Of a stretch of 64,000 bases of DNA, positions 1 to 22,073 are shown piece by piece. Source of the stretch: Pelotomaculum sp. (GTDB lineage: Bacteria; Bacillota; Desulfotomaculia; Desulfotomaculales; Pelotomaculaceae). The notes under the pieces were generated by a model that had not been told where the DNA came from, searched no databases, and saw nothing but the letters and a program-made list of their open reading frames with translations. Numbering within the stretch: position 1 is the first letter of the stretch; every line of letters begins with the position of its first letter. The DNA is taken from the NCBI GenBank assembly GCA_018435055.1, contig JAHDOA010000039.1:1-64000 (forward strand), given 5' to 3'. The position numbers and the translations under genes were made by a program.

Positions 1-128
1 GATGCATGGATACATTATAAAGGATTATATGATAATGGCTCACTTTATCCGGAATAGTGGCTCATTCGAAAACGGAAAGCTGGCTCACTTTGGCCGGACT
101 GGTGGCTCAAAATGGACAAGATTACCCA
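1..128. mobile_element. IS21-family-like element terminus (partial)
   Basis: Four copies of TGGCTCA start at 36, 58, 81 and 103, giving units of 22, 23 and 22 bp, and copies 1 and 3 extend to TGGCTCACTTT. Iterated sites of about 20 bp inside the ends are typical of IS21-family elements, where they are thought to bind the IstA transposase, and those elements end in CA-3'. Here the repeat block ends in CA at 127-128 and the next base begins a CRISPR-repeat remnant. No transposase gene is in the window; it would lie to the left. Family assignment is inference from the repeat pattern only. Confidence 0.5.
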
Positions 129-3100
129 TAAAACCGAGAGATAATTTGTTTTAGGATGTCGAGGATGTTATGTTTCAATTCCTCATAGGAAGGCTAAAAC
201 CACGGACAGTCCACAGGACGTCCAACGGATGTCCAGCGGTTTCAATTCCTCATAGGAAGGCTAAAACCGCAGTATAGCCAGCATCCTTCAGTGCCATTCC
301 CACGGAGTTTCAATTCCTCATAGGAAGGCTAAAACCCAAATAAAACAATGGGAGTGCGAACACAGTCAACCGCGTTTCAATTCCTCATAGGAAGGCTAAA
401 ACCAGTATAGCCAGCATCCTTCAGTGCCATTCCCACGGAGTTTCAATTCCTCATAGGAAGGCTAAAACCCCCCGTCATCAGCATCAAGCCAAATTTCTTT
501 GCCTTTGTTTCAATTCCTCATAGGAAGGCTAAAACCTTTGAATTTACCGTTTGCTTCTCTGACGTTCATATTATGTTTCAATTCCTCATAGGAAGGCTAA
601 AACCAGCCTGCCCGCTCTGCCAAGATCCTGAAGGGGTATCTGGTTTCAATTCCTCATAGGAAGGCTAAAACCGCTTTCAATATGGGGATTTTATGCGCTG
701 AATATAGGCGTTTCAATTCCTCATAGGAAGGCTAAAACCAAGTGACGGTCTTGAGTCATTTGCCTCTAGCTTCGTTAGTTTCAATTCCTCATAGGAAGGC
801 TAAAACCTTTGCCCTTTGCGCTTTTGATTATACTGTTTTTGTGTTTCAATTCCTCATAGGAAGGCTAAAACCACAACTTATTTTTTGCCATTGTAGAATC
901 AAACAATTAGTTTCAATTCCTCATAGGAAGGCTAAAACCACAAGTTCAAAATGATGACCACTATAGCCTTTATTGTTTCAATTCCTCATAGGAAGGCTAA
1001 AACCGAAAAGCCGGAAGGGTTTCGCCGGCTGATAGAAACGGGTTTCAATTCCTCATAGGAAGGCTAAAACCCTCTCGCAACTGGATCCTGGGGCTTTGGC
1101 GCTTCTTTGTTTCAATTCCTCATAGGAAGGCTAAAACCGACTTGTGTTAGTGATTATATATCCATACCCGCCATGTTTCAATTCCTCATAGGAAGGCTAA
1201 AACCTTACCTCGCTGTTATATGCTTGTCCTCTAAAAATTAGTTTCAATTCCTCATAGGAAGGCTAAAACCCCATGCTAGAAGAATTAATTAATCAAATTG
1301 CTACATGTTTCAATTCCTCATAGGAAGGCTAAAACCTATGGCAGTAAATATTTTATATTCTTCAATATTGGTAGTTTCAATTCCTCATAGGAAGGCTAAA
1401 ACCGACTACATATATAATATATCATAGATGGAGGGAGTTGGTTTCAATTCCTCATAGGAAGGCTAAAACCAACGGCGGCCCGGCTTCCGTCGATGTCAAT
1501 GAGATAGTTTCAATTCCTCATAGGAAGGCTAAAACCCAACAACCCGCAGAAATCGTGCATCCTCTATTTTATGTTTCAATTCCTCATAGGAAGGCTAAAA
1601 CCGAGAAGGAGACTGATTTCATCGACGTGGTGGTATGGAGGTTTCAATTCCTCATAGGAAGGCTAAAACCGGATAGGGAGTATGTGAAAATGGTAAAAAA
1701 TTATTGGTTTCAATTCCTCATAGGAAGGCTAAAACCTTTTTCTGTTGAATGCCTTTTTGAATATGATATTCGTTTCAATTCCTCATAGGAAGGCTAAAAC
1801 CTTGGGATTTTTTCATTTTTTACACTCCTTTTATTTTTGTTTCAATTCCTCATAGGAAGGCTAAAACCTGCAAAAAGCCCGATTAAATGATTGTAATTTA
1901 CACGGGGTTTCAATTCCTCATAGGAAGGCTAAAACCAAAAGAAAAAACGCAGCTACCACCTGCAAAAAGTCTGTTTCAATTCCTCATAGGAAGGCTAAAA
2001 CCTTGATAGTCGTTGTCGATAGATCCATTATGGATACCGAGTTTCAATTCCTCATAGGAAGGCTAAAACCTTTTCGCTTCTTTTTCTAGGCAACATTATC
2101 ATTCCTGGTTTCAATTCCTCATAGGAAGGCTAAAACCGAAATGTCTCGCGGTTCCCGTCCTGGTACGTCACTCGTTTCAATTCCTCATAGGAAGGCTAAA
2201 ACCCCCACCAGGCCAGATTCTGCCCGTCTGAAACACTGGTTTCAATTCCTCATAGGAAGGCTAAAACCTCTAAATAAGCCTGCCTGTTGCCGATAGAGAT
2301 TTGCTGTTTCAATTCCTCATAGGAAGGCTAAAACCGCCCAGGGCCGACCCTGCGAACACTGATTGATCAATGGGTTTCAATTCCTCATAGGAAGGCTAAA
2401 ACCTAAATCCGTTCTTGCCGTTACCCCGACCCATGACAATGTTTCAATTCCTCATAGGAAGGCTAAAACCGTAGAGGGTTTAATATTTAAGAACGCAAGG
2501 ATCTTGTTTCAATTCCTCATAGGAAGGCTAAAACCGATATACTCCACAGCAGGCGCTCCTGCCTGCACTCCTGGTTTCAATTCCTCATAGGAAGGCTAAA
2601 ACCAACGGCATCGGCAAGGAGTTTCTGGCGCTGGGCCAAGTTTCAATTCCTCATAGGAAGGCTAAAACCTCAACGGGGTACTTATACGGCGCGGCTTGAT
2701 GATGGTTTCAATTCCTCATAGGAAGGCTAAAACCACGATGTTGCGGACGTAAACTAACTAACGAGGGCGGTTTCAATTCCTCATAGGAAGGCTAAAACCC
2801 CCTGCTTCTTCTTCTATTCCATCATCATACTGAGCTAGTTTCAATTCCTCATAGGAAGGCTAAAACCCACAATCGTGTTCACTGCTTTCTCCTTTCAGTA
2901 AGTAGTTTCAATTCCTCATAGGAAGGCTAAAACCATGTCGTTAATCGTTTCCGTGTGTGACGGCTTCTTGCGTTTCAATTCCTCATAGGAAGGCTAAAAC
3001 CACACCGCGCCCATACAAAACCCCATCGTAAAGCCGTGTTTCAATTCCTCATAGGAAGGCTAAAACCTTTGCAGTAGCTCTGTCATACCCCAACCACAGG

Positions 3101-5599
3101 CGGGTGTTTCAATTCCTCATAGGAAGGCTAAAACCATATCTCCTGTGCTTACATTTGTAAACACCTTTTTTAGTTTCAATTCCTCATAGGAAGGCTAAAA
3201 CCTGTTGTGTCTCCTGAAAAAATCATCCAGATATCCTGTGTTTCAATTCCTCATAGGAAGGCTAAAACCAGGAGCCGGTTTAGCAGCCCCTGGCTGTCGT
3301 CATCCTGGTTTCAATTCCTCATAGGAAGGCTAAAACCTCTTTTTGAAGTTTTGCTAATCTCTTTTCAGATTTTCGTTTCAATTCCTCATAGGAAGGCTAA
3401 AACCATCCATACCCGCCATCAATGGCTATATCATAACCGGTTTCAATTCCTCATAGGAAGGCTAAAACCGCTTTAGTGCCGGTGACTGTTCCCGGGGTGC
3501 CTACTGGTTTCAATTCCTCATAGGAAGGCTAAAACCCAGCACGAGCCCGGCCATTAGGGCGCCCATACCAAGTTTCAATTCCTCATAGGAAGGCTAAAAC
3601 CCCCCGGTTGCTGCGAGAAGCCTGAATTGCCTTGTCAGGTTTCAATTCCTCATAGGAAGGCTAAAACCTTTGAGCTTATACACGCGTATGACAATGAACC
3701 TGTTGGTTTCAATTCCTCATAGGAAGGCTAAAACCGGCGGCTCAATGCAACTATGGAGCCCGCCCTCGGCGGTTTCAATTCCTCATAGGAAGGCTAAAAC
3801 CGCAAATTCGATTTGCGTCCCGCTTACCTGTCTGCCGGTTTCAATTCCTCATAGGAAGGCTAAAACCCCTTTTGACAAAAAAATATTCTGATTATTGTCG
3901 ATAGTTTCAATTCCTCATAGGAAGGCTAAAACCAATAGCTACCCACATTAAACAACCCGCGCTCCCAAAGTTTCAATTCCTCATAGGAAGGCTAAAACCG
4001 CATGGCAGGTGGCCAGACAGCGAGCGCTGGCCCGTGAGTTTCAATTCCTCATAGGAAGGCTAAAACCCATTATAGTTTACCGTACCGCTACTTCCATCTA
4101 TAGTTTCAATTCCTCATAGGAAGGCTAAAACCTGCTGACCAGTAGTTGTCCAATCATTCAGGCCGGAGTTTCAATTCCTCATAGGAAGGCTAAAACCTTT
4201 ATCTTGCCTGCCACTTTCTCACCACCTTTCAGGGTTTCAATTCCTCATAGGAAGGCTAAAACCGGTTGGAGTGCTGAAGGACCAGCAGGCCGAAGGAGAG
4301 TTTCAATTCCTCATAGGAAGGCTAAAACCTCCAGCTATCTGGCCATCCTGATTCAGCGCTCCGACCGGTTTCAATTCCTCATAGGAAGGCTAAAACCCAT
4401 CGCCTTTGAGGTGCCGGAGAAGATGACGGACGTGTGTTTCAATTCCTCATAGGAAGGCTAAAACCTGTGGATGGCCTCGCTGCTTCAATTGCTGCTGATG
4501 TTAGTTTCAATTCCTCATAGGAAGGCTAAAACCCAAAGATTAGGAAGCCCCAGGGGGCCAAAAAACTTGGTTTCAATTCCTCATAGGAAGGCTAAAACCC
4601 GACCACAGAAACAAAGGGCGAGCCCTGGAAGAAAATGTTTCAATTCCTCATAGGAAGGCTAAAACCTATAGATACAGTTGCGGCAGTATACCGGGAAGAG
4701 GAAGTTTCAATTCCTCATAGGAAGGCTAAAACCGAAGATAATATCGTTGGGGAAGCAAAAAATGACGGGCGTTTCAATTCCTCATAGGAAGGCTAAAACC
4801 CTTGCATCATCAGGATCAATTGTTGCAAATGATGGGTTTCAATTCCTCATAGGAAGGCTAAAACCACAGGTAGGTTGGGATGGCAATACAAGGACGGTGA
4901 CCAGTTTCAATTCCTCATAGGAAGGCTAAAACCGCAGCGCCTTGTGAAGTAGAAATTAGCAAAGTGGGGGTTTCAATTCCTCATAGGAAGGCTAAAACCG
5001 TATAACCTTTCATTACGGCCTGGATATCTAGTGTTGGTTTCAATTCCTCATAGGAAGGCTAAAACCATAACTGTAAGCCAGGTGGGCCGGCTTGATTTCC
5101 TCGTTTCAATTCCTCATAGGAAGGCTAAAACCGGGAAGTATATTTTAGTCTGCGGTGTGCGCTATGGCTGTTTCAATTCCTCATAGGAAGGCTAAAACCC
5201 TCTCGCTATTCCGATAGTTGAATAGACTCTCGCATGTTTCAATTCCTCATAGGAAGGCTAAAACCAGAAGTTCGGCGCCTGGGGGCTGTTTATTGCTATC
5301 CAGGTTTCAATTCCTCATAGGAAGGCTAAAACCTTACGTCGAACTCTACATTGAGAATTGGGTTGTCCTGTTTCAATTCCTCATAGGAAGGCTAAAACCT
5401 GGAATTCCAAAAAGTAATTGATATTAGTAGCCAGTTGTTTCAATTCCTCATAGGAAGGCTAAAACCATGTGTCTGGCGCAGAGCTGGAGCCGGTAGACAT
5501 AAGTTTCAATTCCTCATAGGAAGGCTAAAACCATCACCCGGAAGCCGGCCACAAAAGCAACCGGGCAAGGTTTCAATTCCTCATAGGAAGGCTAAAACC
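129..5599 (-). CRISPR. CRISPR array, 82 intact repeats plus a truncated one, 82 spacers
   Basis: A 30-nt repeat beginning GTTTCAATTCCTCATAGG and ending AGGCTAAAACC occurs 82 times, first at 172-201 and last at 5570-5599, at intervals of 65-68 nt (spacers mostly 35-38 nt). I saw no repeat variants. At 129-135 the last seven bases of a repeat (TAAAACC) remain, followed by a 36-nt spacer (136-171), so the left end is a cut-off array. Read on the minus strand the repeat ends in ATTGAAAC, the usual 5' crRNA handle of type I-B and III systems, and the cas genes lie to the right on the minus strand. Transcription is therefore inferred leftward, with the newest spacers near 5599. Apparent ORFs here that repeat VSIPHRKAKT or FQFLIGRLKP are translations of the repeat. 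Confidence 0.99.
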
Positions 5600-5780
5600 C
5601 CGTTAAAATGCTTAAAAAATAAGGCTTTTTTAATTGCCATAAGATTAATAATCCCGGTATTTGATTTTAGGTAAGTCTTATAATATCTAGTTTTCCGGCT
5701 ATTTTAATGTCGTCGATATAGGTTTAATTGTACGCTATCATAGGTGGACGACAATTTAGACGACTGTATAACATGGAAAA
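5600..5780 (-). promoter_or_regulatory. CRISPR leader region
   Basis: This AT-rich, non-coding stretch lies between the end of cas2 and the first repeat in the inferred direction of transcription, where the leader is expected. It contains two GACGAC copies 12 bp apart (5747-5752, 5759-5764) and an inverted GTCGTC (5709-5714), which could be adaptation-complex or host-factor sites. A convincing -35/-10 pair could not be fixed by eye. Leader identity rests on position and base composition. Confidence 0.65.
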
Positions 5781-6056
5781 TTATATGATATTTTCCTGAC
5801 CTCCTTTTTCTAAACCCATTATTTCCCGGGAAGAATATTTTGTAGTCCTCAGGGTATAGAAAATAACGGAATCCTCCTCTTTTTTTATAATACGCTCCAA
5901 TTCCATCTTCAGCTTCTTTAAATTTGCGTCTGAAATTTCACCTTCCAGAACAGAGTTTTGAACCCAGTGTAAATACTGGCGGCATTTTTTTAGAACTTTA
6001 CCTACCCTCTTCTGATTGACATCATATACCAAAATAATAAACAAAGTAAACACCAC
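5781..6056 (-). CDS. cas2: CRISPR-associated endonuclease Cas2
   Basis: A 91-residue protein of normal Cas2 size. It begins with a hydrophobic beta strand ending in Y-D (Asp12), the conserved acidic position of the ferredoxin-like Cas2 fold, followed by the R-V-G-K-V-L-K-K helix. Cas2 dimers bridge two Cas1 dimers in the spacer-integration complex. The start is GTG at 6056 (a second GTG follows directly) with only a weak upstream site, 10 nt after the cas1 stop, so translational coupling to cas1 is likely. It is the last gene before the leader and array. Family assignment is firm. Confidence 0.93.
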   Translation of the reverse strand: MVFTLFIILVYDVNQKRVGKVLKKCRQYLHWVQNSVLEGEISDANLKKLKMELERIIKKEEDSVIFYTLRTTKYSSREIMGLEKGGQENII

Positions 6057-6066
6057 GTTAAATTAT

Positions 6067-7059
6067 TTACCATCTGGCCACAAATGCGCTGTATTCCTTT
6101 TCACCGATCAGGTGTTTTTCTATTTTATAAAGTTCCAGGCGAATTAACCTCCGATAGGATACGTGCCGGCCGATTTCCCTATGGTTAATAGTAGTCTTAA
6201 GCTTGTTGTCCAACTCCTCGATAAAGCACTTTCTGGCTTTTTCTTTGAGCATAATACCTTCCGTATCCCGATCAAAATCCTGCTTGGTAATCATCTTTTT
6301 ACCTATCAAGGTGAAAATAATGCGGTCTATAATTATAGGTTTAAAAATTTCTGCTAGATCCAGGTTTAAGGTGAAACGGCGGAAATTGGTGGCATGCAAA
6401 TAACCAATGCGCGGGTCTAAATGGGTTTTATAAATTTCACTGAGACAAATAGTATAAAGTAGGGAGTTGCCAAAGCTGATCAGTGTGTTGAGATAATTTT
6501 TTGGTGGCCGTCTGCTGCGCACCTGGAAAATAAAGTCCGGATTGCCGGTTATATTGTCAAATGCCTTATAATAATGATCCCTGATATTGCCTTCTATTGC
6601 CATTAAAGTAGTAGTATCCGGGCAATCATTAATTACTTCTAGAAGCCTTTCCACCGATTGAAGAACCTCAGTTACGTTTTTATCACGGCTTTGATAATAC
6701 TTCAGAACCTGACGAATATTCCTCGCGGCCCCGTATACTATTCCTTTTGCAATAGTAAGACGTTTTTCATCATCCAGATAGTGTTCAGCCTGCTTTAGGG
6801 TCATGTAGCCGGAATTAAGGTGTTCTCTGGGATAAAATGATCCCATGTAGTAACCGTAATAATTAAAAAAATGCAGCACAATTTCTTTTTGGGAGAGGAA
6901 ATCCAAAAGTTTTTTATTAACTGTAACCTCGCCAAAAATCATGATTTCACCGGTATCCTCAACAGGTATGTACTTTTTCGCTTCTTCAGATTCGAAATAA
7001 AGGGTATTGGCTTTTCTCACCAATTCCCCGTTGGAAAAAATATATAATGTTTTTTTCAA
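6067..7059 (-). CDS. cas1: CRISPR-associated endonuclease Cas1
   Basis: Integrase subunit of the adaptation complex, 330 residues from the chosen TTG start at 7059, which has AAGGAG at suitable spacing; the longer frame to 7086 would overlap cas4. The metal-binding triad is visible: Glu156 (in AIEGN), His222 (in YLHATN) and Asp234 (in LDLAEIFKP). The N-terminal beta domain and helical C-terminal lobe have normal lengths. The gene lies between cas4 and cas2 in the usual cas4-cas1-cas2 order of type I-B loci and is the only cas1 here, so it presumably supplies spacers for both the I-B and III-D effectors. Confidence 0.96.
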   Translation of the reverse strand: MKKTLYIFSNGELVRKANTLYFESEEAKKYIPVEDTGEIMIFGEVTVNKKLLDFLSQKEIVLHFFNYYGYYMGSFYPREHLNSGYMTLKQAEHYLDDEKRLTIAKGIVYGAARNIRQVLKYYQSRDKNVTEVLQSVERLLEVINDCPDTTTLMAIEGNIRDHYYKAFDNITGNPDFIFQVRSRRPPKNYLNTLISFGNSLLYTICLSEIYKTHLDPRIGYLHATNFRRFTLNLDLAEIFKPIIIDRIIFTLIGKKMITKQDFDRDTEGIMLKEKARKCFIEELDNKLKTTINHREIGRHVSYRRLIRLELYKIEKHLIGEKEYSAFVARW

Positions 7060-7073
7060 CTTTATTCGCTCCT

Positions 7074-7580
7074 TCAGGACCAGCAAAACTCAGCGTAGGC
7101 GCATTTTTTACAGAACTTTATTTTAACGGCAGGAGGAGGCTGTGGCAGGTAGAGGATGCGTAAAATCTCACGTTTGGTTTGGTTAAGTTCCTTCTCAGTC
7201 TCTTCATCCAAAATGACTTCTTCACGCTGTTTTTCCCGGGGAAAACGCAGCTCACCCCTGGCCGTTATGCCGCGTTGTTTTAATTCTTCAAGGTAGAACG
7301 CCAACTGCATCCTGGCACTAAAGCGGTATTTGGAGGTTTTTTTTACTTCGCCAATAATCAATTCTCCGCCAGCTATTTTGAAAACGTCCATTTTACTGTG
7401 GCCGATGGCAAGTTCCTTGCGCTCCCTGGGATAAGAATAATCCTGGATAAACCGGCCAAGGGACACGTTGGCGTCGTCCTGATCGGGTGTGATCTGATGG
7501 GCTATCAACCAGACCTCCCGGGGGCAGATGTAATAGTACCATATTAAAGTGCCGCTGACGTTGATTTCACTGCTTTCCAA
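7074..7580 (-). CDS. cas4: CRISPR-associated exonuclease Cas4
   Basis: A 168-residue Cas4 of the compact Dna2/RecB-like type. Four cysteines for the [4Fe-4S] cluster are present: Cys19 (in YICPREVW) and Cys157, Cys160 and Cys166 at the C terminus. The PD-(D/E)XK nuclease core is represented by Asp65, Glu78 and Lys80 (in GEVKKTS). Cas4 trims prespacers and helps select PAM-adjacent, correctly oriented spacers. Translation begins at TTG with GGGAGG upstream. It follows the III-D effector block and overlaps the longest possible cas1 frame. The spacer pair sharing one PAM-side end (see findings) agrees with an active Cas4. Confidence 0.95.
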   Translation of the reverse strand: MESSEINVSGTLIWYYYICPREVWLIAHQITPDQDDANVSLGRFIQDYSYPRERKELAIGHSKMDVFKIAGGELIIGEVKKTSKYRFSARMQLAFYLEELKQRGITARGELRFPREKQREEVILDEETEKELNQTKREILRILYLPQPPPAVKIKFCKKCAYAEFCWS

Positions 7581-7611
7581 TCGGTTACCTCCCTAGGAAT
7601 GAGACATAATA

Positions 7612-9555
7612 CTATTTTACTCCAAGCGGCTCTGGCAACACTTTACGTTCCTTAAATACATCTATATCCATGTAGCGAGTTGTCTCCGAAGTCTTGCCCG
7701 GCCATTCCAACATTTTCAAGAGTGTCTTGATTCGTTTGGTATTTACAAGACATTCCGCATCACCCTTGTCATCCGGATGTATTTCTTCTAAAATGTGACA
7801 TTCAAAAGCATTGACAAAATAATTATTATTTTTAACAATTGTTTCCCCCTCAAACCACCGTCCGTTTTTTATTAAGCTTTTGTAACGGCTTTTACGATCC
7901 ATAAGATGCAGCACTGGCTCTATTTTTACTGAACCCATGCCAAGCGGCTTGCCCATGCCAAGCTTGTGGCGGTATTTATCACCGGGAAGGCTCAGTACCC
8001 AAAGTAAAGCCCCAAGTTCTTTGTCTTCCATATTTTCAAAATAAATGCAAAAGGAAAAGTTTACACCCGGTCTTACTGGTTTAATTAACGTGTATTTTTT
8101 TGGATTTTGTTTTATTTCGTCATCATTTTCCTTAATGTTATTTATTTGCACATCTCTTTTGTGCCAGTATAGCTTATGTCCGCGAATAATTGTTGAGGGA
8201 CTGGCATAATGGTTGAGCTTTCCCGGGTCTTCCGGTATTTGCTGGGTTAGATAATGCTGAAAGGCTGCAGGTTTGGGTGAGCTAAGCACTTTTGGTGTGA
8301 TAATAGGTTTGCTATCTAACCAAAGGCTGTCAGATACTGACTTAACACAAGCATCTGTAAAAAAGACTCTCCCAGCCCGGCTTTTACTGTTATCTTCTCC
8401 TTTTTTATGATCCATGCTATTCGCAAAGCCAAATATTGCCTCAGCCAGATCAATTTCGTTTTCTCTGCGCAGGTGATCAGGCGTATAATCATAAGGGCTT
8501 GCAGCTCGGTCCAGGTGATTTGGTATAGCAGGAATCCTGAAATTGGGACTGTGTCCAAAAAAGTAAACTGATTCATTCTTTAAGACGTAAAAAACAGGAC
8601 GCCCCTCCTTTAAGCAGCCGTATCTGCTATCAAAAGGTTCCTGTTTTTGAAAGGGAGTTAATGTAGATAAGTAATCTGTGACAACACTTTCGTTGATCTT
8701 TAAAGCTTTCTTCTTATTATCCTGTTCTAGAATAACAACATGAGTGGTTCTAGGTGATGTCTTTTCTCCTCCTGTTTCCGCCATATTTCCCGAACAGACG
8801 AGAATGCCGCAATATTTGGATCCAGGTTTAGCTGTCTCAAGGTCGAAAATTCTGGGTTTCCCTTTTACAATCTTGACATTGAAAGAAACCTCGTGGTATT
8901 GGGGCTTATAATTTTGCTTGTCTTCAAGGCTTATAAATCCTAGCAATGTTTTATTGGAAATATCCTTATCCTTTATTTCCAGGTAAGATTTTTTGTAATG
9001 CCGGTCATAATCGGATGGAGTCTTAGCCGGCTGAATATACCAGGAGTCGTTCTTTTTACGAAGATAACCGGCCTTCACATTAGAGGAATATTTGCCCATA
9101 ATTTTTCTATATTCTGCTGCCAGGGAGTCCTTTTCGGGGGATGTTGCAACTGCGCGAAAAGTTACCCGGTCTTTAATTAACCACTGCATTTTCCCATAAG
9201 CAGCGATCTCCACTAGTGATCGCACCATTCCCCGCAGGCTGCTGCCCGGTATAACCGGTTCATCTGGTCGGTCCGGCCTATGGTAGAATTGCGCCCGTTC
9301 TATTTTTTGCTCTTCTGATAATTGGGGAAATTCGTTATCGCCAAATCTACTAAAGAAGTCCTTGGTCATAGCCGACCGGATGTAAAGAGGCGTTTCTACG
9401 GTAAGGGTACATTTAATGTAACCGTTATTCCCTGTATACTCATCTTGTCCGGGTATATCATTAATGTCAACAGTTACTACTTTTTCCGGCAGGGGAACAA
9501 AATTATAAGGTGCGCAGGCAATGCGGTTTTTAGGGTTGTTGTGTTTCGGGTTCAC
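7612..9555 (-). CDS. TIGR03986-family RAMP protein (large Cas7-like subunit, III-D)
   Basis: A 647-residue RAMP protein of the TIGR03986 type. An N-terminal RRM-like strand precedes VIPGSSLRGM (residues 101-110), the Gly-rich signature of Cas7-like folds, and a C-terminal loop K-L-G-M-G-K-P-L-G-M-G (about 545-556) closes the second half. The long insertion between these landmarks makes it the probable counterpart of the insertion-bearing Cas7 subunit of III-D effectors. It should sit in the backbone of the Cas10 complex and contact crRNA or target RNA. Start GTG at 9555; the gene is last in the effector block, 23 nt after csx19. Family confident; exact position in the complex inferred. Confidence 0.85.
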   Translation of the reverse strand: MNPKHNNPKNRIACAPYNFVPLPEKVVTVDINDIPGQDEYTGNNGYIKCTLTVETPLYIRSAMTKDFFSRFGDNEFPQLSEEQKIERAQFYHRPDRPDEPVIPGSSLRGMVRSLVEIAAYGKMQWLIKDRVTFRAVATSPEKDSLAAEYRKIMGKYSSNVKAGYLRKKNDSWYIQPAKTPSDYDRHYKKSYLEIKDKDISNKTLLGFISLEDKQNYKPQYHEVSFNVKIVKGKPRIFDLETAKPGSKYCGILVCSGNMAETGGEKTSPRTTHVVILEQDNKKKALKINESVVTDYLSTLTPFQKQEPFDSRYGCLKEGRPVFYVLKNESVYFFGHSPNFRIPAIPNHLDRAASPYDYTPDHLRRENEIDLAEAIFGFANSMDHKKGEDNSKSRAGRVFFTDACVKSVSDSLWLDSKPIITPKVLSSPKPAAFQHYLTQQIPEDPGKLNHYASPSTIIRGHKLYWHKRDVQINNIKENDDEIKQNPKKYTLIKPVRPGVNFSFCIYFENMEDKELGALLWVLSLPGDKYRHKLGMGKPLGMGSVKIEPVLHLMDRKSRYKSLIKNGRWFEGETIVKNNNYFVNAFECHILEEIHPDDKGDAECLVNTKRIKTLLKMLEWPGKTSETTRYMDIDVFKERKVLPEPLGVK

Positions 9556-9578
9556 CTTGTAGCTCCACTCCTTTAATA

Positions 9579-10157
9579 TTATTTCAATGACATCGGGCGG
9601 CTGTACGGGATGTAAGCTTGGCCATCACTGTCGTAATCAATATAATGGCGGACTTGAAGGGTTACCGGGAATTTAAACTTTTCCCTGATAGGGGGGGCAT
9701 GCAAGAAACCTTGACTTCCTTCCTCCAGCAAGGTAAAACCTTCACGAGTTTCCCTCACCGATTTTCCCCATAAAAGGTAGTCCTCATCATAATACTCTTT
9801 TTCCACACCCTCTCCATCTTGCAGCAACCTGGCCCGCCAGCGCTGGCCGGTGCCGTTCCTCCATACGAACAACTCGCCGCTTATCCCGAAAAGCCTGGCC
9901 TGCTGCAGGGTAATAGCCCGCAAAGAAGTAGCTACACTAGGTGACTCAGGGAAATAATCGCTGGACAGGAGCATATCCCCGTCCCGGTTCTCTCCCCATA
10001 TTACCCCGTCGTCGGCATGGGCCAAAAACCAGTGTAGGTTATATAATTCGCCTTGCTTAAACAGCCAGCCCCTAATATCACTTTCAAAGCTGTCCGGAAC
10101 TTGTAAAGAGCTAATCATAGAGTATGTCTTTAATGTCTTACCTGTCTTAAATGTCAA
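9579..10157 (-). CDS. csx19: Type III-D CRISPR protein Csx19 (TIGR03984)
   Basis: A 192-residue protein recognised as Csx19/TIGR03984 by its W-F-L-A-H-A-D-D-G-V-I-W-G segment (about residues 43-55) and by its place between RAMP genes. Csx19 accompanies Csx10 in subtype III-D effectors; its biochemical role is poorly defined. It starts at TTG (10157) with GGAGGTGA upstream and overlaps the preceding RAMP gene by 11 nt, indicating translational coupling. No catalytic motif is apparent. Its presence is one of the main reasons for calling the module III-D rather than III-A or III-B. Confidence 0.85.
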   Translation of the reverse strand: MTFKTGKTLKTYSMISSLQVPDSFESDIRGWLFKQGELYNLHWFLAHADDGVIWGENRDGDMLLSSDYFPESPSVATSLRAITLQQARLFGISGELFVWRNGTGQRWRARLLQDGEGVEKEYYDEDYLLWGKSVRETREGFTLLEEGSQGFLHAPPIREKFKFPVTLQVRHYIDYDSDGQAYIPYSRPMSLK

Positions 10158-11646
10158 TTCTACTCACCTCCCGAATAAAACTCTGAACGTAGACTTCCAA
10201 AAGATCCTGGGAATTGCCTTCTATGATTAACCTGTCATCCGTTGATCTTTTTAATAACCACTCCTTTTCAAAAAGGCCATTATTCTTCCTGGTAAGACTG
10301 GCTTCTAGTCCCTTCAGGCGGCCACGTCCTATGCCAGTTTCTCCCCCCAGGGGTAAGTCTCCGGTCCATAGATCCTTTAATAATAAGAGTAAAAGCCCAA
10401 TATCTTCATCCTTTGGGTTTTGGACCATAAGATCTATCTGAACTTGTGTTTCGTCGAGACCACAGATCGGTAACTCATCGAAAAGAGCGCTACGGTAAGC
10501 CCCTCCGGTAAACCGGTCAATCTTTACCCGGTTTACTACCATCTCCGACGGGTTAATAATCTCCTTTTCTTCTGCAATCAGCCTACTGGCTTTTGGATTT
10601 TCATTTTGTTTATCTGAACCAAATAGCTCCTCAATCAATTTATTGGCTGCTGTGTTAGTGCCAACAGTTTTTGCGATGCGTAGCGCCCGAGCCCGCAATG
10701 CGCCGGCAAGACTGGTACCACTTAATATAGGGACTATCTTGTCGCCGCGCCATGAATGCAGGTGTGCCGTGTCCGGCGAGTCTGAAGCACCTGAACTGGA
10801 ACGGATGATTAGTGTGCCCTCCAATTTACAAGTTGCATTAATAAAAATGGCTGATCTTCTGTCTAGGTCAACTTTTTGCGCTCCCAATAAATTGCTGATG
10901 TCTGTCCCGCTTTGCTTCTCTCCCTCACTTCCGGAAAGCCAGTCGAGCAAACCCTCGGGTCTGCTAAAGTCATAGCGACAAACTTGCCAATGTTTTACCC
11001 GACAGCGACCAAACCCCCGGCTTTTACGCGCACCCAGAGCTATTTCTCCCTTCTCCAGCCCCTCCAGGGCAATTGCCAGAGCGCTGAGTAATTGCTCTCT
11101 ATCACTTTCCCGCACCAGTAGTTCCAAACGCAGGGGAAAGGCGATACCTGCTGCGGCTGCCAGCAATTCCATATCATACTTATATTTGTAATCTGCCGTA
11201 CGGGTGGTGTGGTTAATGGCCACACCATCCCGCAGTTCCAGCCAGGGTCTTGTATAGTTAACTATGACATGATCTTTGAAAGCCAACTGTTTTTTTTCGG
11301 TATCCGGGCGAAAGCCTACTTCAGCCAGGGCGTCGCTTATTATAAGCCAACTTTGTGCACCATCGCTGTCCTTTTGAAAACCAAAAAGGAATGTTTCCAA
11401 ACTACTTTCATTCCCTTCTTTCCTGTAACCGTGCTCTCGTTCCCGCAAGTAATGACGCAGGGCGCCAGCCAGGGAAGCGCCGGTAAGGAGGGCCCGCCCC
11501 TCTAAAGGATCAAGTAAAAGGGGCATGTCCACCAGAGAAGAACCATCTCCTCCACCGAAGTAAACCGGTGTTTCCAGAACAAGATGACCGGTGACAACAA
11601 TACGCTCTGTGATTTCGCGGCTCTGCAGCCATCTAGCTTTCTGCAC
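10147..11646 (-). CDS. Double-Cas7 RAMP protein (Cas7-2x-like), III-D backbone
   Basis: A 499-residue protein with two consecutive Cas7-like modules. Module 1 carries LVDMPLLLD (Asp40 at the position of the Cas7 target-cleaving aspartate) and GASLAGALR (56-64), then GARKSRGFGR. Module 2 repeats GTSLAGALR (about 309-317) after an Asp-containing loop, and ends with GETGIGRGRL. Each module should occupy one backbone position and may cut target RNA. Start GTG at 11646 with AAGGAGGAG upstream; it overlaps csx10 by 14 nt and csx19 by 11 nt. This architecture matches the tandem Cas7 protein of III-D/III-Dv loci. Whether both aspartates are catalytic cannot be told by reading. Confidence 0.85.
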   Translation of the reverse strand: MQKARWLQSREITERIVVTGHLVLETPVYFGGGDGSSLVDMPLLLDPLEGRALLTGASLAGALRHYLREREHGYRKEGNESSLETFLFGFQKDSDGAQSWLIISDALAEVGFRPDTEKKQLAFKDHVIVNYTRPWLELRDGVAINHTTRTADYKYKYDMELLAAAAGIAFPLRLELLVRESDREQLLSALAIALEGLEKGEIALGARKSRGFGRCRVKHWQVCRYDFSRPEGLLDWLSGSEGEKQSGTDISNLLGAQKVDLDRRSAIFINATCKLEGTLIIRSSSGASDSPDTAHLHSWRGDKIVPILSGTSLAGALRARALRIAKTVGTNTAANKLIEELFGSDKQNENPKASRLIAEEKEIINPSEMVVNRVKIDRFTGGAYRSALFDELPICGLDETQVQIDLMVQNPKDEDIGLLLLLLKDLWTGDLPLGGETGIGRGRLKGLEASLTRKNNGLFEKEWLLKRSTDDRLIIEGNSQDLLEVYVQSFIREVSRIDI

Positions 11647-13222
11647 GCTGTTTCTCCTCCTTTGCGGCTATTGCTAAAATACCGTCAATCAGCCGGGCGG
11701 CATACTCCAGAGCCAGTTCAGCTGATAAATCCGGTTTTACTCCTCCTATGGACGGTAAATCGCTGCTTTCAATCTTTAAAAGATCCCATACTTCTTTAGG
11801 ATTTTCCGCCAAATTTTTGAGCCAAGTTGTTAGCAGCTGTTCCATAATACTAACTCTGACCTTGGAGCTATCAAACTGGTCTCTTGCCGCTGTTTTCAGA
11901 TGATCCAGATGGTCGCACAATGGTTTTATGTTTTTATCCTTCATAACCTGCCTGAGTAAGGAGCGCAGTCGCCCGATTTGGCTTCTGCTCAAGTTGGATG
12001 TAAATCTAATATGGTTAATTAAATGTATCAGGTGTTCGTCAAGATCGACTCTCAGCATCCGGTCCACCATCCTTGCCGCCAAAGAACAGGCATCTTTATC
12101 ATTTTTATCCAAAAGGTAAGGAAGGGGTTTTTGCTTGTTTTCTTTCTTGACTTTAATCACTTTGGCTCTGTGCCAGTTAATAGCCAACCGGCCAAAACCC
12201 TCGGAACGCCTCTCCCCAACGCCTTTGTTAATTAGCTCGAACAGCTTTTCCGGAAGAACGGCATTTTTGCATTTATATACAAATACACTGCCGGCCTGAA
12301 TTGCCATGGTCTGGGTAAGCGGAAGGTTCCAGGTGCGGTTGAAGCCACCTATAATACGGGTGCGTTTATAAGCCCGAAGGTTTTTTAAGCCGTAAAAGCC
12401 CAGCGCCTGATCCAGATCCGCAACCCAATTGCCTGTTTCATTATCTCTGATTATGGCATCGCTCAGAAGAGTCACTACCACTAAATCTGTATCATCCTCC
12501 AGCGATTTGTATTCTGACCAGTCATTTGACCACTGTACATCGGAGAATTCTACTCTTCCGTAACCGGCCTGGTGGGACCCTCCCAGGTTAAAACATATAC
12601 CGTCAAAAACCAATCTTCCCAGTTCCTTTTTAATCTCATTAAAATCATTGGAGGTCAAATCGTCGTTAAACACCACGGAACATGCATACTTTTCACCAGG
12701 CGCCAGCGCCTGATAGCGAAATACATTGCTTTCCTTAGGCCTATTCAGGCATTTCCTGTCACCCCGATCAATATGAATATTTAACTGCTTATGGGGCTGG
12801 TGAAATGTGGCACAAAAATCGCTTCCCGAACTACTCAATGTGTGACAGAAGGGAAGACTTACACTTTTCCAAATCTTATCAGGACCTGGTTCAACAACTG
12901 CAAAATCTAGTACCGGCTCATTGGTGTCTTTTTCTACATACCAGGACAGTGGGGTTGGCAAAGTACGGCTTCCATCCCTGGATTGAGGATAGGCATTCAA
13001 AAAGCATACGGCTTCGCTGAAAAACAATCTGTGAAAAAGTATATCGGAAGCATTTACTCTTCCATCAGGAGTTCTTTCTTTGACATAACGGCCAATAAGG
13101 GCGCCGCGCAGCGCACTACCCGGTATAAAATCAAAACTCCGGGCACTATTCGGGTCGCCAGCACTCATCTGGGTGGCCAGTAGAGGCTCAAGTAGTTTGA
13201 TTGAAAAAGTTAGGGCACGCAT
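11633..13222 (-). CDS. csx10: Csx10 RAMP protein with helical C-terminal extension
   Basis: A 529-residue Csx10, the Cas5-group RAMP that marks subtype III-D and holds the crRNA 5' handle. Landmarks are FIPGSALRGAL (32-42), a Gly-rich loop GGSHQAGYGRV (about 215-225) and GERRSEGFGRL (about 340-350). From about residue 360 to 529 the sequence becomes almost entirely helical and charged, with no RAMP motif, and resembles a Cas11-type small subunit; that reading is inference. Start ATG with GGAGGTG upstream. It overlaps the upstream cas7 by 13 nt. No separate small-subunit gene occurs in this operon, which supports the idea that the extension plays that part. Confidence 0.85.
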   Translation of the reverse strand: MRALTFSIKLLEPLLATQMSAGDPNSARSFDFIPGSALRGALIGRYVKERTPDGRVNASDILFHRLFFSEAVCFLNAYPQSRDGSRTLPTPLSWYVEKDTNEPVLDFAVVEPGPDKIWKSVSLPFCHTLSSSGSDFCATFHQPHKQLNIHIDRGDRKCLNRPKESNVFRYQALAPGEKYACSVVFNDDLTSNDFNEIKKELGRLVFDGICFNLGGSHQAGYGRVEFSDVQWSNDWSEYKSLEDDTDLVVVTLLSDAIIRDNETGNWVADLDQALGFYGLKNLRAYKRTRIIGGFNRTWNLPLTQTMAIQAGSVFVYKCKNAVLPEKLFELINKGVGERRSEGFGRLAINWHRAKVIKVKKENKQKPLPYLLDKNDKDACSLAARMVDRMLRVDLDEHLIHLINHIRFTSNLSRSQIGRLRSLLRQVMKDKNIKPLCDHLDHLKTAARDQFDSSKVRVSIMEQLLTTWLKNLAENPKEVWDLLKIESSDLPSIGGVKPDLSAELALEYAARLIDGILAIAAKEEKQRAES

Positions 13223-13887
13223 TTTAACACCTCCTGTTTAAATAGGAAGTAATATTTTGATGTAACGTCGTGCAGGTTTTCATCTAATAACCTGGCGCAA
13301 ACTTCGCCGCGCCCCCTGTTACGCCCGCTACCGACCCGCCTGAAAGCCATCACACAAGCAGCTAAAAGAGCCAACTCCATTTCTGCCAGTTTTGTTGAAA
13401 AAGACAAAGGCGCTTCGAAAACAGTGTTTCGCAGGATTACCCGCATTGCACGCAGTGTTTCATCCTGAGCAGCGGCAGTTTCTGCACTTATAGCTGTCTG
13501 CCAGCGGACAGTTGTGAGTGATTCAAGTACTTGTTGCCGGGTAATTTCATGCCGTTTAACACTAACCTCAACAGCCTTTCGCAAATTTAACGGCAGGCGC
13601 GCGTCCCCAACATGCATGATCGACTGATCTCGAATCGTGCTGCCGGGAACACCGAATAGTCTTTGCGCCGCCTTTGGGAAGGATGTGTCTTTTGTTTTTT
13701 GGATCTTGAGCGCAAAAAGGATATTAGCGCATTCCTCCTGTAATATACCTTTTAAAGATCGCCCTCCCAGATATGGCAACCCCCATTCGTCATGATATAT
13801 TTCATTATCAACTTTTTCGGTAGACCCTTCCCCCCGACCGAAGAGGGTATCACTTAACAACCAAAACTTCAGCCATATTTTCAACAT
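13210..13887 (-). CDS. cas7: Cas7/Csm3-like RAMP protein
   Basis: A single-module Cas7 of 225 residues. Residues 26-47 hold the Csm3-like pattern V-D-N-E-I-Y-H-D followed by L-G-G-R-S-L-K-G; Asp27 aligns with the aspartate that cleaves target RNA in Csm3. A Gly/Arg loop, GSGRNRGRGEV, lies near the C terminus. The ATG at 13887 overlaps the cas10 stop (ATGTTGA) and has GGAGGTG 7 nt upstream, so it is preferred to the longer frame. The gene lies directly between cas10 and csx10, the place where III-Dv loci carry the first module of a Cas7-5-11 fusion. Confidence 0.88.
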   Translation of the reverse strand: MLKIWLKFWLLSDTLFGRGEGSTEKVDNEIYHDEWGLPYLGGRSLKGILQEECANILFALKIQKTKDTSFPKAAQRLFGVPGSTIRDQSIMHVGDARLPLNLRKAVEVSVKRHEITRQQVLESLTTVRWQTAISAETAAAQDETLRAMRVILRNTVFEAPLSFSTKLAEMELALLAACVMAFRRVGSGRNRGRGEVCARLLDENLHDVTSKYYFLFKQEVLKCVP

Positions 13888-15506
13888 GGCGCATCCACCT
13901 CCAGCGGTACAAAGAATTCCAATGCTTCTAGCGCGTCGTAGCAGGTGCAACGTTTATCGATGTAGCCTGTATCTCTTGCCACATCGTTGCCAGGCACTAC
14001 GGGAAGTTGGGGAAGTTGGTATATCTTGCGGAACTGCTTTACTGTTTCTTCACCCCTCCGCAAAGCACTTTGCAGGTCCTTCAACTTATTGCGTCTTGAT
14101 GACCATTTTGAGGATCGGAATTCTTTTATCATAGAAGAAAAGAGAGCCCATGTGCGCCAATCGGCGCCTATTACTCTACCCAAGCGTATCGGTCGCATTA
14201 GTAAGAACCTGTCGTCAGGCATAAAATCCTGCTCACGTAAGACATCCAGTGTCCTTATCAATCCGCTCATCGCAAAATGCCAGTCAATTACTGATTCATT
14301 TATACCATCAGAAGATAGTTCTCTTATACGTTCTTTGGCTGATTTTGTTAATTCTTCTACTAGGGAATATGCTCGGGCAAACGGATAATGGGCCTTTACT
14401 ATTGCCACGCCTGCCCTGGCTGTATGAGGCAGTTCGTCGGACAGGGGACTTCCGGTAAACAAAGAGAGGTAATTTTGAGCCAGGGTAAGGCCCAGTCGCC
14501 CATTGCAGATAAAAGTAGCGTCATCACCCCCAAAAACGATGGGACGGAAGGGGAGGTAGTTATTTTTTAACTCAACAACACCAGCCACCTTTTTTACTCC
14601 ATTTTTGTCTTCTATGGAACGTATTAACTGGTCAACAGTGCCATTTAAAGCTTTTTCCGCTGCTTTATTGATGGATTGAGACAACTTTCGCATCTCCTCA
14701 ATATACCTGCGGTTATCTATGCAGCTAGAAAAGTTTTTGGCTATGGTGTTAACGCGCTTTCCCATGCCATTCCCGTCGGTATGCACTACAGCAATGTAAC
14801 TTGACTTGCCCTTGTCCAGGCCAAAATCATCAAGGAATACAGGGATTTCGTAAGAGCCTTTACTATTGTCAAGCGCTATAATACTTAAAAGGCGGTTGTG
14901 AGCGGCAGAAAACGCATCCAACTTAGCTACTACCTCTGCTGACACACGCTTTTTCTCGCTTTCACCCATGTCCCTTTCGCAAATTGCCGGCAGGCCCGTG
15001 AACTGACAATCTGCTGTAACACTAAGGCCGAGCAACGGAGTTGACACTGGTCGATTGGCCTTTTTTGCGTTTAACTCACCGATTAACTTTATTACGGTTT
15101 CTGAAAGGGAAGGATTATTATACCAGTCAAATTCCTTGTGTTTTATAATGACTTGCAGGCCGGGCGCATACAACAAAGCGTTGCGACTAAGCTTTTTAGC
15201 AAATTCTTTAGCGATGTCCAGCTTGCTAAAAATTATTACTGCATTCCCTCCGCCGGTGTAAACTAATTCCGATGTTAATCCGCCATGTTCAATTCCTTTT
15301 TCTTCAAAAATGAGTTTTAAAACCTTATTCTTATGTTTTAGAATAATATTAGTAGATCCTAACTCTTGTAACACCTCGTAAACCCAATCATGCGTTGCGC
15401 GGTAAACAAGTTCCGAGGCGCCTATGTTTTGCCTTAAATTGTTGCTGGCGTAAATATAGTTTTGAATGCCTGCCGTCTCTATAATCGTTAGCGTGAATTC
15501 GCCCAA
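13881..15506 (-). CDS. cas10: Cas10 (type III signature; cyclic oligoadenylate synthase, no HD domain)
   Basis: A 541-residue Cas10. The second Palm domain has F-G-G-D-D (GGDD at 326-329), the motif that makes cyclic oligoadenylates, and the first Palm has V-H-T-D-G-N-G-M-G-K (241-250). The N terminus begins directly with a Palm-like strand; there is no HD nuclease, so DNA cleavage by this subunit is not expected. The TTG at 15506 is chosen because AAGGGGG precedes it by a proper distance and lies 19 nt past the upstream gene; the longer frame to 15623 would overlap that gene by 98 nt. The two CARF proteins upstream in the operon fit cOA production. Confidence 0.93.
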   Translation of the reverse strand: MGEFTLTIIETAGIQNYIYASNNLRQNIGASELVYRATHDWVYEVLQELGSTNIILKHKNKVLKLIFEEKGIEHGGLTSELVYTGGGNAVIIFSKLDIAKEFAKKLSRNALLYAPGLQVIIKHKEFDWYNNPSLSETVIKLIGELNAKKANRPVSTPLLGLSVTADCQFTGLPAICERDMGESEKKRVSAEVVAKLDAFSAAHNRLLSIIALDNSKGSYEIPVFLDDFGLDKGKSSYIAVVHTDGNGMGKRVNTIAKNFSSCIDNRRYIEEMRKLSQSINKAAEKALNGTVDQLIRSIEDKNGVKKVAGVVELKNNYLPFRPIVFGGDDATFICNGRLGLTLAQNYLSLFTGSPLSDELPHTARAGVAIVKAHYPFARAYSLVEELTKSAKERIRELSSDGINESVIDWHFAMSGLIRTLDVLREQDFMPDDRFLLMRPIRLGRVIGADWRTWALFSSMIKEFRSSKWSSRRNKLKDLQSALRRGEETVKQFRKIYQLPQLPVVPGNDVARDTGYIDKRCTCYDALEALEFFVPLEVDAPC

Positions 15507-15525
15507 GTTGGCCGCCCCCTTACAT

Positions 15526-16683
15526 TTAAGTACAAATCCAATCCTGCAGGTAATCCTGCAAGGTATGCAAGTGTTCTTCACCGAAAACGCGTATCTTTCC
15601 AGGCGCATCCCATGACTGCTCAACTTCCTGCTGAAGAGAATCAGGGTCGCTATAATTGCAGATAAGACCTACTCGCGCTTCACCACCCCCTACCTGCCTG
15701 GCCCGCACGAAAACTTCGAAGAGGTGTTCTTTGCATTTTGATTTTTCATCCGACACAATACATGAAATAGCAAAAAGCCGGTATCCCAAAATTAAGGCTA
15801 AATCCAATTCAAAATCACTTTTTTGTTTTGAGTTTTTTAAGCATTTCAGGTTCATGCCGTAATCGCTAACATTGTTAAGTTTGTTTTGGTTGATTAACCG
15901 AATAATAGTATTCAGTACATAGCTTTCTAACCATTTGCCCTGAAACCAGGTTTGACAGGAGCAAAGACCTTTTTCATAATATCCTATTGCACGGGCTAAA
16001 TTACTTGCGTTGAATTCTTTTCTGTTACATATTTGTTTCATAACAAGAACTACACCCTCTAAACCATCTGTTGCCGGAGGCAAATTCTTACATTGATCTT
16101 TGTTTGTCCACTTTTTCCAGGTATTCAGGGCTTTCTTGTCTTTATAAAGGTTTGCTATGGCCTCACACAATTCGGGATGCTTGGGAACTCTAGTGAATTC
16201 ATCTTCATTAATACTTAGACCGTGGAGACCCAGTATTTCTGCAATTGTTATTCTAATCTTATCATTTGCCGGCACATCGTCGGAATAGCCATCAGCTTTG
16301 CTAATTTTCATTTTCAAGCTACGGTCATCAAGATAACTGTATATTGCATTTGTATTGACTTCTTTTATTGCCTGATAGGCATGGACAGCCATTGTCTTTC
16401 TGCCACCGGTATAATTAAGGCCAACACCTTCCTTTTCACGGGCATAGGGAGATATTGCCTGGTAAATTGAGTGAGGGTCAGCCTCATCCACCTGGATCTT
16501 GTTGTACCGTTTAGCATCAGGTAATTTCAGTATATTAATCAGTTTATCTGCTATATGCCCGGTGTTTCTACTGTGCACAAAATAAAAATGCGTATCAGGA
16601 CCGGCCAACATTTTCGCTGCAACATAGTTGGGCAGGGGATTGGTCCCGATTAACATAAACAAGTGTTCACTTACATAAGACAT
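15526..16683 (-). CDS. Card1/Can2-like CARF protein with PD-(D/E)XK-type C terminus
   Basis: A 385-residue cOA-responsive effector. The CARF half has a Rossmann strand with a G-T-N-P-L-P loop (13-18), H-S-R-N-T-G (37-42) and L-N-Y-T-G-G-R-K-T-M (89-98), the usual nucleotide-binding signature. The C-terminal half resembles a PD-(D/E)XK nuclease: W-L-E (Glu253), F-E-L-D (Asp294), then Y-R-L-F-A-I-S-C (301-308) and V-R-A-R-Q-V-G-G-G-E-A-R (326-337). Where many homologues have Glu-x-Lys after the strand, this one has Ser-Cys-Ile. Cyclic oligoadenylate from Cas10 would activate it. Start ATG with GGTGGTGA upstream; it precedes cas10 by 19 nt. CARF fold firm; nuclease activity uncertain. Confidence 0.75.
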   Translation of the reverse strand: MSYVSEHLFMLIGTNPLPNYVAAKMLAGPDTHFYFVHSRNTGHIADKLINILKLPDAKRYNKIQVDEADPHSIYQAISPYAREKEGVGLNYTGGRKTMAVHAYQAIKEVNTNAIYSYLDDRSLKMKISKADGYSDDVPANDKIRITIAEILGLHGLSINEDEFTRVPKHPELCEAIANLYKDKKALNTWKKWTNKDQCKNLPPATDGLEGVVLVMKQICNRKEFNASNLARAIGYYEKGLCSCQTWFQGKWLESYVLNTIIRLINQNKLNNVSDYGMNLKCLKNSKQKSDFELDLALILGYRLFAISCIVSDEKSKCKEHLFEVFVRARQVGGGEARVGLICNYSDPDSLQQEVEQSWDAPGKIRVFGEEHLHTLQDYLQDWICT

Positions 16684-16816
16684 AATAAGGCTTCACCACC
16701 AATTTATTGTTTTTATAGATATACATTTAAAACAGTGAATCAATAAAAAACTAATTATCGGGAATTATCTGTTTCAATGATTAAGTCGGTTATTTGGTTA
16801 TAATGAGTGGTTCACT

Positions 16817-18736: not shown

Positions 18737-18993
18737 TAAATAACGCCCCCCTCGCAATTTTGAAATAACACGTTTTTTAGTTCTCTGCCATTCTTTAAAA
18801 AAGGAAATTACCTTCAACTTGTGGTGAAAGATTCTGAAACAGCAGCTAGGAGTAACGGAAGATGAGTGTTAGAATATGATGTAGCGTTACTCTGAAGGTA
18901 TTGTAAATAATGCAAGCCTTTGTTAGTTCAATTCCATATTTTTATTAACTTGATAACTTCTATTACAGGGAAGATAGAGGGGAAATGCGAATT
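18737..18993 (-). promoter_or_regulatory. Intergenic region before the III-D operon, with perfect inverted repeat
   Basis: No gene is seen between the csx1 start and the cas3 stop. A perfect 8-bp inverted repeat, GAGTAACG (18851-18858) and CGTTACTC (18886-18893), is separated by 27 bp, and AT-rich tracts lie on its cas3 side. This is the natural place for a promoter or operator allowing the III-D block to be expressed apart from cas3. No promoter could be fixed with confidence. Confidence 0.35.
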
Positions 18994-21342: not shown

Positions 21343-22067
21343 AGAAGCATCAAAACCCTTTCCTTACCCAGGTATGCTTCGGTTGTTTTTAAAGGTATTG
21401 GCCGGGCGTCTTTTTCCGCGAAGTAATTGGCGTGTTTAAATACTCTTTTGGGTGTTACTGTTCTGGGCATGCGCAGGAGATTGATGGCGAGTTTTTCAAT
21501 GTAGCACTTTTTAATATCGAGCTGAACATAATCCTGCCTGACTGCTGTTTCAACCGGGTAGGTTCCCTCCGGTAATTTTCTGGCTGCGATGGAATCAATA
21601 AATTCAATATCGGCCATCATTTCCGACAAACCCAGGCTCGGCTGGAAATACCACTTCCGCATTTTAAGGCGATTTTCCAGTTCGGTATGATATGGTTCAG
21701 GCAAGCCGGCCCATACTTCGTAAGATGGATTGAATAACCACTCCTGGGTAATCAATGTTGCTTTTTCCGGCTTGGTATTTTTTTCTTGTTTTTGAGACCT
21801 TTTAACAGCGCAGGAAAGCAATTCAGGGGGATCTTTCCTCAGCTTGGCCTTATGCCAGTGAGTAACAGGGATTTTGCCGGATAAAGCAACATGCATCGGT
21901 TTAAGCAATTCCTGGGGCTGATCTTTGGGAAGACCAAGCACGGCTCCCATGAGCCCGATAATCACTGTCCTCGGTGGTATAGGGTAGCTTAAGGCGCTCG
22001 CTCCTGCATCTGCCCGGAGAAAATGGCCGAAACGCCCATGTAAGCGAAAATTTATTAGTTTTATCAT
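21339..22067 (-). CDS. cas5: Cascade subunit Cas5 (type I-B)
   Basis: A 242-residue Cas5. It opens with K-L-I-N-F-R-L-H-G-R-F-G-H-F and then S-Y-P-I-P-P-R-T-V-I-I-G-L-M-G-A-V-L-G (about 27-45), the typical Cas5 Gly-rich signature. It caps the crRNA 5' handle in the I-B Cascade. The gene sits between csh2 (6 nt upstream) and cas3 (4-nt overlap) in the standard cas8-cas7-cas5-cas3 order. No catalytic His triad suggesting Cas6-type activity is evident, and a separate Cas6 is present in this locus. Confidence 0.92.
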   Translation of the reverse strand: MIKLINFRLHGRFGHFLRADAGASALSYPIPPRTVIIGLMGAVLGLPKDQPQELLKPMHVALSGKIPVTHWHKAKLRKDPPELLSCAVKRSQKQEKNTKPEKATLITQEWLFNPSYEVWAGLPEPYHTELENRLKMRKWYFQPSLGLSEMMADIEFIDSIAARKLPEGTYPVETAVRQDYVQLDIKKCYIEKLAINLLRMPRTVTPKRVFKHANYFAEKDARPIPLKTTEAYLGKERVLMLL

Positions 22068-22073
22068 AGAATA

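What the first reader, a model, noticed from the sequence alone, without database searches (positions are those of the whole stretch)
1..171. CRISPR array cut inside a repeat by an IS21-like end
Four TGGCTCA sites at 22-23 bp intervals end in CA at 127-128; the next seven bases, TAAAACC, are the end of the CRISPR repeat, and a 36-nt spacer-sized sequence (136-171) leads to the first full repeat. The simplest reading is insertion of an IS21-family element within a repeat, so more of the array, or its deletion, should be found to the left.
Basis: partly seen in the sequence, partly recalled or inferred. Interest (0 to 1): 0.6.

Follow-up and report, generated by a model that had tools for sequence, protein, structure and literature searches.

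The report
IS21 insertion splitting a CRISPR array
A common kind of jumping gene (IS21 family) landed inside one repeat of a long CRISPR array and probably cut off its twelve oldest memories; the event is real, but the same kind of event has been described in other bacteria.

Summary
Window 1-128 is the left (istA-side) end of an IS21-family insertion sequence. It ends ...GATTACCCA and is followed by TAAAACC, the last seven bases of the 30-nt CRISPR repeat. The window begins at base 1 of its contig (C9), so nothing can be read to the left.

The same end closes four other contigs. I compared all 140 contig ends. Four further ends carry a matching right end, which opens with the tail of IstB. 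Each right end pairs one-to-one with one of those four left ends through an exact 5-bp target duplication (4 of 4). All four rejoined empty sites are open through the junction. The only unpaired left end is the one in the CRISPR repeat.

The only other contig with this repeat, C36, carries the leader-distal rest of the array: 11 full repeats, a decayed last repeat and 12 spacers. It begins with the repeat's other end (TTGAAAC), but its junction to the element is not assembled. The element thus separates about 12 oldest spacers from 82 leader-side ones (join inferred).

Precedents exist in Xanthomonas citri (IS21 family) and M. tuberculosis (IS6110). This is an ordinary new instance of a known kind.

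The parts
1..128 (-). Left (istA-side) terminal 128 bp of an IS21-family element; element body lies to the left, istA would read leftwards (minus strand); terminus is ...GATTACCCA at 128
   Evidence: 100% identical to the ends of contigs C14, C32, C35, C47; homologous ends lie upstream of istA in other genomes; right-end partners with 5-bp target duplications
36..109 (+). Four TGGCTCA copies (36, 58, 81, 103), the multiple terminal repeats of the IS end, presumed transposase binding sites
   Evidence: GAGCCA pairs at 20-26 bp in 16 of 72 relatives' istA upstream regions against 2 of 1320 control stretches
129..135 (+). Last 7 bases (TAAAACC) of the interrupted CRISPR repeat; its first 5 (TAAAA) are the predicted target duplication
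136..171 (+). 36-nt spacer, the most leader-distal spacer left on the leader side of the element
172..5599 (-). Leader-side part of the CRISPR array: 82 full repeats (GTTTCAATTCCTCATAGGAAGGCTAAAACC), transcribed leftwards from the cas side (inferred from the GAAAC-type repeat end, the adjoining cas2-cas1-cas4 and the decayed repeat at the far end on C36)
5781..7580 (-). cas2, cas1 (I-B type), cas4 next to the leader end of the array
   Evidence: NCBIfam TIGR01573, TIGR03641, TIGR00372

Best explanation
An IS21-family element present in at least five copies transposed into a CRISPR repeat between its bases 23 and 24 (GGC^TAAAA), presumably copying TAAAA as a 5-bp target duplication. Its istA-side end faces the leader side. 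The element's genes should therefore run in the same direction as the array transcript, towards the 12 oldest spacers, which now sit on contig C36. Shown: the element end, its exact boundary, its copy number, its 5-bp duplications at four other sites, and the existence of a leader-distal array fragment with the same repeat. Inferred: the joining of C9, element and C36, the TAAAA duplication at this site, and the effect (loss or change of transcription of the 12 old spacers and an ill-defined 3' end for the crRNA of spacer 136-171). There is no sign that the element prefers repeats: the five flanks share no sequence.
For: Five contig ends share this end exactly. All 140 contig ends were compared: four ends share a second terminus that begins AKDFSMREVYGLDKTLSE-stop, like the IstB tail of L100 (SMREVYG), and ends CACCGGAATATCCA. 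Target duplications CGATT (C47/C18), TCGGC (C32/C38), GCATA (C14/C51) and AGATA (C35/C65) pair 4 of 4 right ends uniquely; the 16 other pairings match 0-2 bases. Rejoined sites have open frames of 137-171 codons through the junction in 4 of 4. The repeat occurs only on C9 (82 full copies) and at the very end of C36 (11 full copies) in this genome and in none of 24 other genomes of the family. C36 begins TTGAAAC plus a spacer, which is the end of the predicted flank TTTTAGCCTTCCTATGAGGAATTGAAAC. C36 carries the decayed trailer repeat and C9 the cas side.
Against: C36 stops 7 bases into the repeat and holds no element sequence, so the right junction at this site is not seen. No fifth right end exists among the 140 contig ends. 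The element's istA-istB body is not in the assembly: own-genome istA/istB hits belong to other elements. C36 could in principle be a second array, and the genome estimate carries 4.36% contamination.
Confidence: 0.9

Rival explanations
1. The element did insert into the repeat, but a later element-adjacent deletion or recombination removed or moved the far side; C36 is the trailer end of a separate, second array with the same repeat.
For: The fifth right end is missing and C36 has no element sequence.
Against: All four other right ends keep their original partners, so no element-element recombination is seen. No other contig carries the repeat, so no leader or cas side of a second array was found. 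The two contigs have complementary ends, leader side and trailer side.
Confidence: 0.08
2. Assembly artefact: the element end was joined wrongly to the array by the assembler.
For: The junction lies at a contig end, and contig ends in this assembly share 141-base stretches, as expected of a k-mer graph. C9 keeps only 128 bases of the element, the others 140-141.
Against: The break falls exactly at the element's terminus as defined by four other sites. The remainder is an in-register repeat piece followed by a normal-length spacer. A graph overlap would stop inside the element, not create this boundary.
Confidence: 0.02
3. The TGGCTCA block is an unrelated tandem repeat or an alternative leader.
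For: It is a regular, short-period repeat.
Against: Identical copies at four other sites with right-end partners and 5-bp duplications; homologous blocks upstream of istA in other genomes; cas genes lie at the other end of the array.
Confidence: 0.005

Closest known systems
IS21-family element (ISRso19-like) in the CRISPR array of Xanthomonas citri pv. citri (PMC6889575)
   Same: IS21-family element splits a CRISPR array; array pieces lie at contig ends and the inverted repeat recurs only at contig ends (section 7 read)
   Different: Xanthomonas; [quoted passage not shown] confirmed there by PCR and sequencing. Here the insertion is inside a repeat and not bench-confirmed
IS6110 in the direct-repeat locus of Mycobacterium tuberculosis (PMC7820667)
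   Same: An insertion sequence cuts one CRISPR repeat into two halves and divides one array in two, with a target duplication (passages read)
   Different: IS3 family, 3-bp duplication, type III-A locus
IS21 / IS5376 (PMC10122671)
   Same: istA + istB between two ends made of multiple repeats, terminal CA, about 5-bp target duplication (passages read)
   Different: That paper describes two repeats per end (L1/L2, R1/R2); this left end has four GAGCCA copies

Membership tests
IS21 family | istA gene next to the left end | tested here: inconclusive
   The body is not in the assembly; homologous ends in relatives lie upstream of istA, but this element's own istA is unseen
IS21 family | istB (AAA+ ATPase) ending near the right end | tested here: met
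   The right-end contigs open with an 18-residue frame ending in a stop, SMREVYG shared with the IstB of L100, which scores PF01695 at 1.1e-47; only the tail is visible
IS21 family | Termini TG...CA | tested here: met
   Read inwards, both ends start TGG; read outwards, both end CCA
IS21 family | Multiple repeats at both ends | tested here: met
   Four GAGCCA at the left; at the right GAGCCG and GAGCCACC; a 16-base stretch 15/16 identical between the ends
IS21 family | Short target duplication, about 5 bp | tested here: met
   5 bp at 4 of 4 sites where both ends are assembled; the site in the array itself could not be tested
IS21 family | DDE catalytic residues of IstA | not testable with these tools
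   istA is not assembled
CRISPR array (I-B/III locus) | Regular repeats with unique spacers and cas genes | tested here: met
   82 identical repeats, spacers of 35-38 nt (one pair alike), cas2-cas1-cas4 beside it, I-B and type III genes beyond

The most novel reading that the evidence does not exclude
Because the element's genes run in the array's own direction, read-through from its promoter could now transcribe the 12 cut-off spacers, so that the insertion sequence acts as a second leader for old memories. The distal half-repeat should keep the inner stem-loop and the ATTGAAAC handle, so processing would still be possible.
Probability: 0.12. Interest if true: 0.4.

Novelty: new member of a known kind. 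Interest (0 to 1): 0.12.

Why it matters
It corrects the size and history of this array: most likely one array of at least 94 spacers, not an 82-spacer array ending at the window edge. It also shows that the oldest spacers are probably separated from the leader by an insertion sequence. Beyond that it is one more case of an insertion sequence disrupting a CRISPR array.

Tried and rejected
Exact scan of public genomes for the element end: no match. Plasmid records: no match. Among 200 related genomes 4, G000 included, had a match to the end; G024 holds an 88% match over 90 bases without an istA nearby, a remnant. First guess that the istA/istB pieces at the start of C32 (and the similar C3) were this element's body: rejected, because the right end of C32's element is unrelated. 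C41's TGGCTC block after a broken istB, and C60's block: related but different elements. A TGGCTC-spacing pattern missed the right ends; comparing all contig ends found them. Spacers against the element's ends: 0 of the 82 C9 spacers share 12 or more bases with either end; C36's spacers were not tested. No relative with the same array was found for an empty-site comparison (0 of 24 other genomes of the family). The promoter scan of the element end (L005) gives 2 sites against 1.0 expected, and the one inside the element end lies on the strand opposite to istA; no use.

Full report
Observation. The motif cluster is unique in the window, and 0 of 200 shuffled windows hold four copies in 80 bases (single-base shuffles). 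The window is G000:C9:1-64000, so its left edge is the end of a contig.

The end recurs. A search of the window's own genome (3.28 Mb, 70 contigs) finds window 1-128 without a mismatch at the ends of C14, C32, C35 and C47, each with the element side at the contig's end. After ...GATTACCCA the five flanks differ: TAAAACCG (C9), GCATAATC, TCGGCCCC, AGATACTG and CGATTCAT. This fixes the boundary at base 128; the bases that agree with the repeat belong to the target, not to the element.

Right ends and duplications. I fetched at least 400 nt from all 140 contig ends (and the window itself) and compared them. Many groups share about 140 bases, as expected where a k-mer assembler stops at repeated DNA. 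One group of four (C18, C38, C51, C65) begins with a reading frame ending AKDFSMREVYGLDKTLSE-stop, carries GAGCC-type repeats and ends CACCGGAATATCCA. The first five flank bases of each right end are the reverse complement of the first five flank bases of exactly one left end: C18/C47 CGATT, C38/C32 TCGGC, C51/C14 GCATA, C65/C35 AGATA. None of the 16 other combinations matches more than 2 bases. A rough chance for four such matches is 6e-10. After removal of one copy of the duplication, all four rejoined sites have a frame open across the junction, 137 to 171 codons within the 400-nt ends used. So this is one element with five copies and 5-bp duplications, and the only left end without a right-end partner is the one in the CRISPR repeat.

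What the element is. Homologous ends lie directly upstream of istA in other genomes. The G191 end, 71% identical over 119 bases, adjoins an istA-like frame. G191's contig C16 and JADQBR010000139.1 (Bacillota bacterium Soudan_17) have the same length and an identical istA frame, and G191 is of the same phylum as the window's genome, so the host is probably one of the Bacillota; this is inference. Among 72 of the 80 kept istA relatives (those with at least 250 bases upstream; 8 dropped), 16 have GAGCCA pairs at 20-26 bp upstream of istA, against 2 of 1320 control stretches. L103 shows the same terminus TGGGTAATC before its GAGCCA repeats. L100 carries a full istA-istB pair between such ends; its IstB scores PF01695 at 1.1e-47 and its IstA the Mu-type C-terminal domain PF22483 at 1.1e-19. 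The published IS21 anatomy (ends of multiple repeats, terminal CA, 5-bp repeats of the target) agrees (PMC10122671, passages). The element's own istA and most of istB are not assembled: I read the istA and istB hits in this genome as belonging to other elements.

The array. C9 holds 82 identical full repeats with 82 spacers, the first of which (136-171) borders the broken repeat. cas2, cas1 and cas4 lie to the right on the minus strand, then type III and I-B genes; the leader is therefore taken to be on the right, and the window's left edge is the old, leader-distal side. The same repeat occurs elsewhere in this genome only at the start of C36: 11 full copies and one copy altered in three of its four last bases in transcript orientation, the usual mark of a trailer end. 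C36 begins TTGAAAC followed by a 35-nt spacer. If the element duplicated TAAAA, the flank after its right end must read TTTTAGCCTTCCTATGAGGAATTGAAAC and then a spacer. C36 starts with the last seven of these bases; the 21 before them, and the element's end, are missing from the contig. I read C9-element-C36 as one array of 94 spacers, 12 of them beyond the element. This join is inferred, not seen.

How it works and what follows. IS21 transposition explains the junction fully. The five targets share no sequence, so there is no evidence of preference for CRISPR repeats. The element's istA reads leftwards, the same way as the array. The leader transcript would meet about 2.5 kb of element (size from L100) before the 12 old spacers, so these are probably poorly expressed. 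Two details bear on that. The distal half-repeat should keep the inner TTCC...GGAA stem and the ATTGAAAC handle, so processing would remain possible if read-through from istAB occurred. Against it, the first distal spacer, C36:8-42, is itself terminator-like in the transcript direction (GCCGCT-loop-AGCGGC followed by TTTATTTTT; 1 found against 1.0 expected in shuffles, so weak evidence). Neither point has been tested.

Known or new. An IS21-family element in a CRISPR array, recognised by the same contig-end signature, is described in Xanthomonas citri pv. citri (PMC6889575, section 7 read). IS6110 splitting a repeat in two with a target duplication is described in M. tuberculosis (PMC7820667, passages). 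A review of the Sulfolobales calls such events rare and cites ISC1359 in a spacer (PMC4390879, passages). Four of my five literature searches concerned insertion sequences in arrays; the fifth concerned the IS21 ends. The finding is a sound, ordinary new instance. Interest is low.

Noticed in passing
window 269-306 and 404-439: Two spacers are the same over 36 bases; one is 2 bases longer at one end, as if one protospacer had been taken up twice or a segment duplicated.
   Followed up: partly
window 1602-1633: A 32-base stretch (last repeat base plus most of the spacer) matches phage record MT835537.1 (human faecal sample) at 96.9%, E 1e-3; the only match of the array (one query, window 129-5640) in 50,697 phage records.
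   Followed up: no
window 5781-25099: One long minus-strand cas locus holds a type I-B set (cas3, cas5, cas7, a weakly matching cas8), cas4-cas1-cas2 and a type III set with a 647-aa TIGR03986 RAMP protein and a weakly matching Cas10-like protein at 13881-15623.
   Followed up: no
L054 (C51 16000-20055) and L050 (C14 1-3000): One of the other copies of the element seems to sit inside another IS21-like istA gene (rejoined frame at C14/C51; rve and istB hits on C51): one IS21-family element nested in another.
   Followed up: partly
L048 8-42 (contig C36): The spacer next to the element on the far side is terminator-like in the transcript direction; such a spacer could damp transcription of older spacers.
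   Followed up: partly
contig ends of G000, groups D and F: A second repeated DNA with nine copies of each end breaks many contigs; its flanks carry TGACACG-like bases at the junctions. One end family (CCGGTTCTGTGAGGGATTGGGG) recalls a group II intron or similar element (recall, not searched).
   Followed up: no
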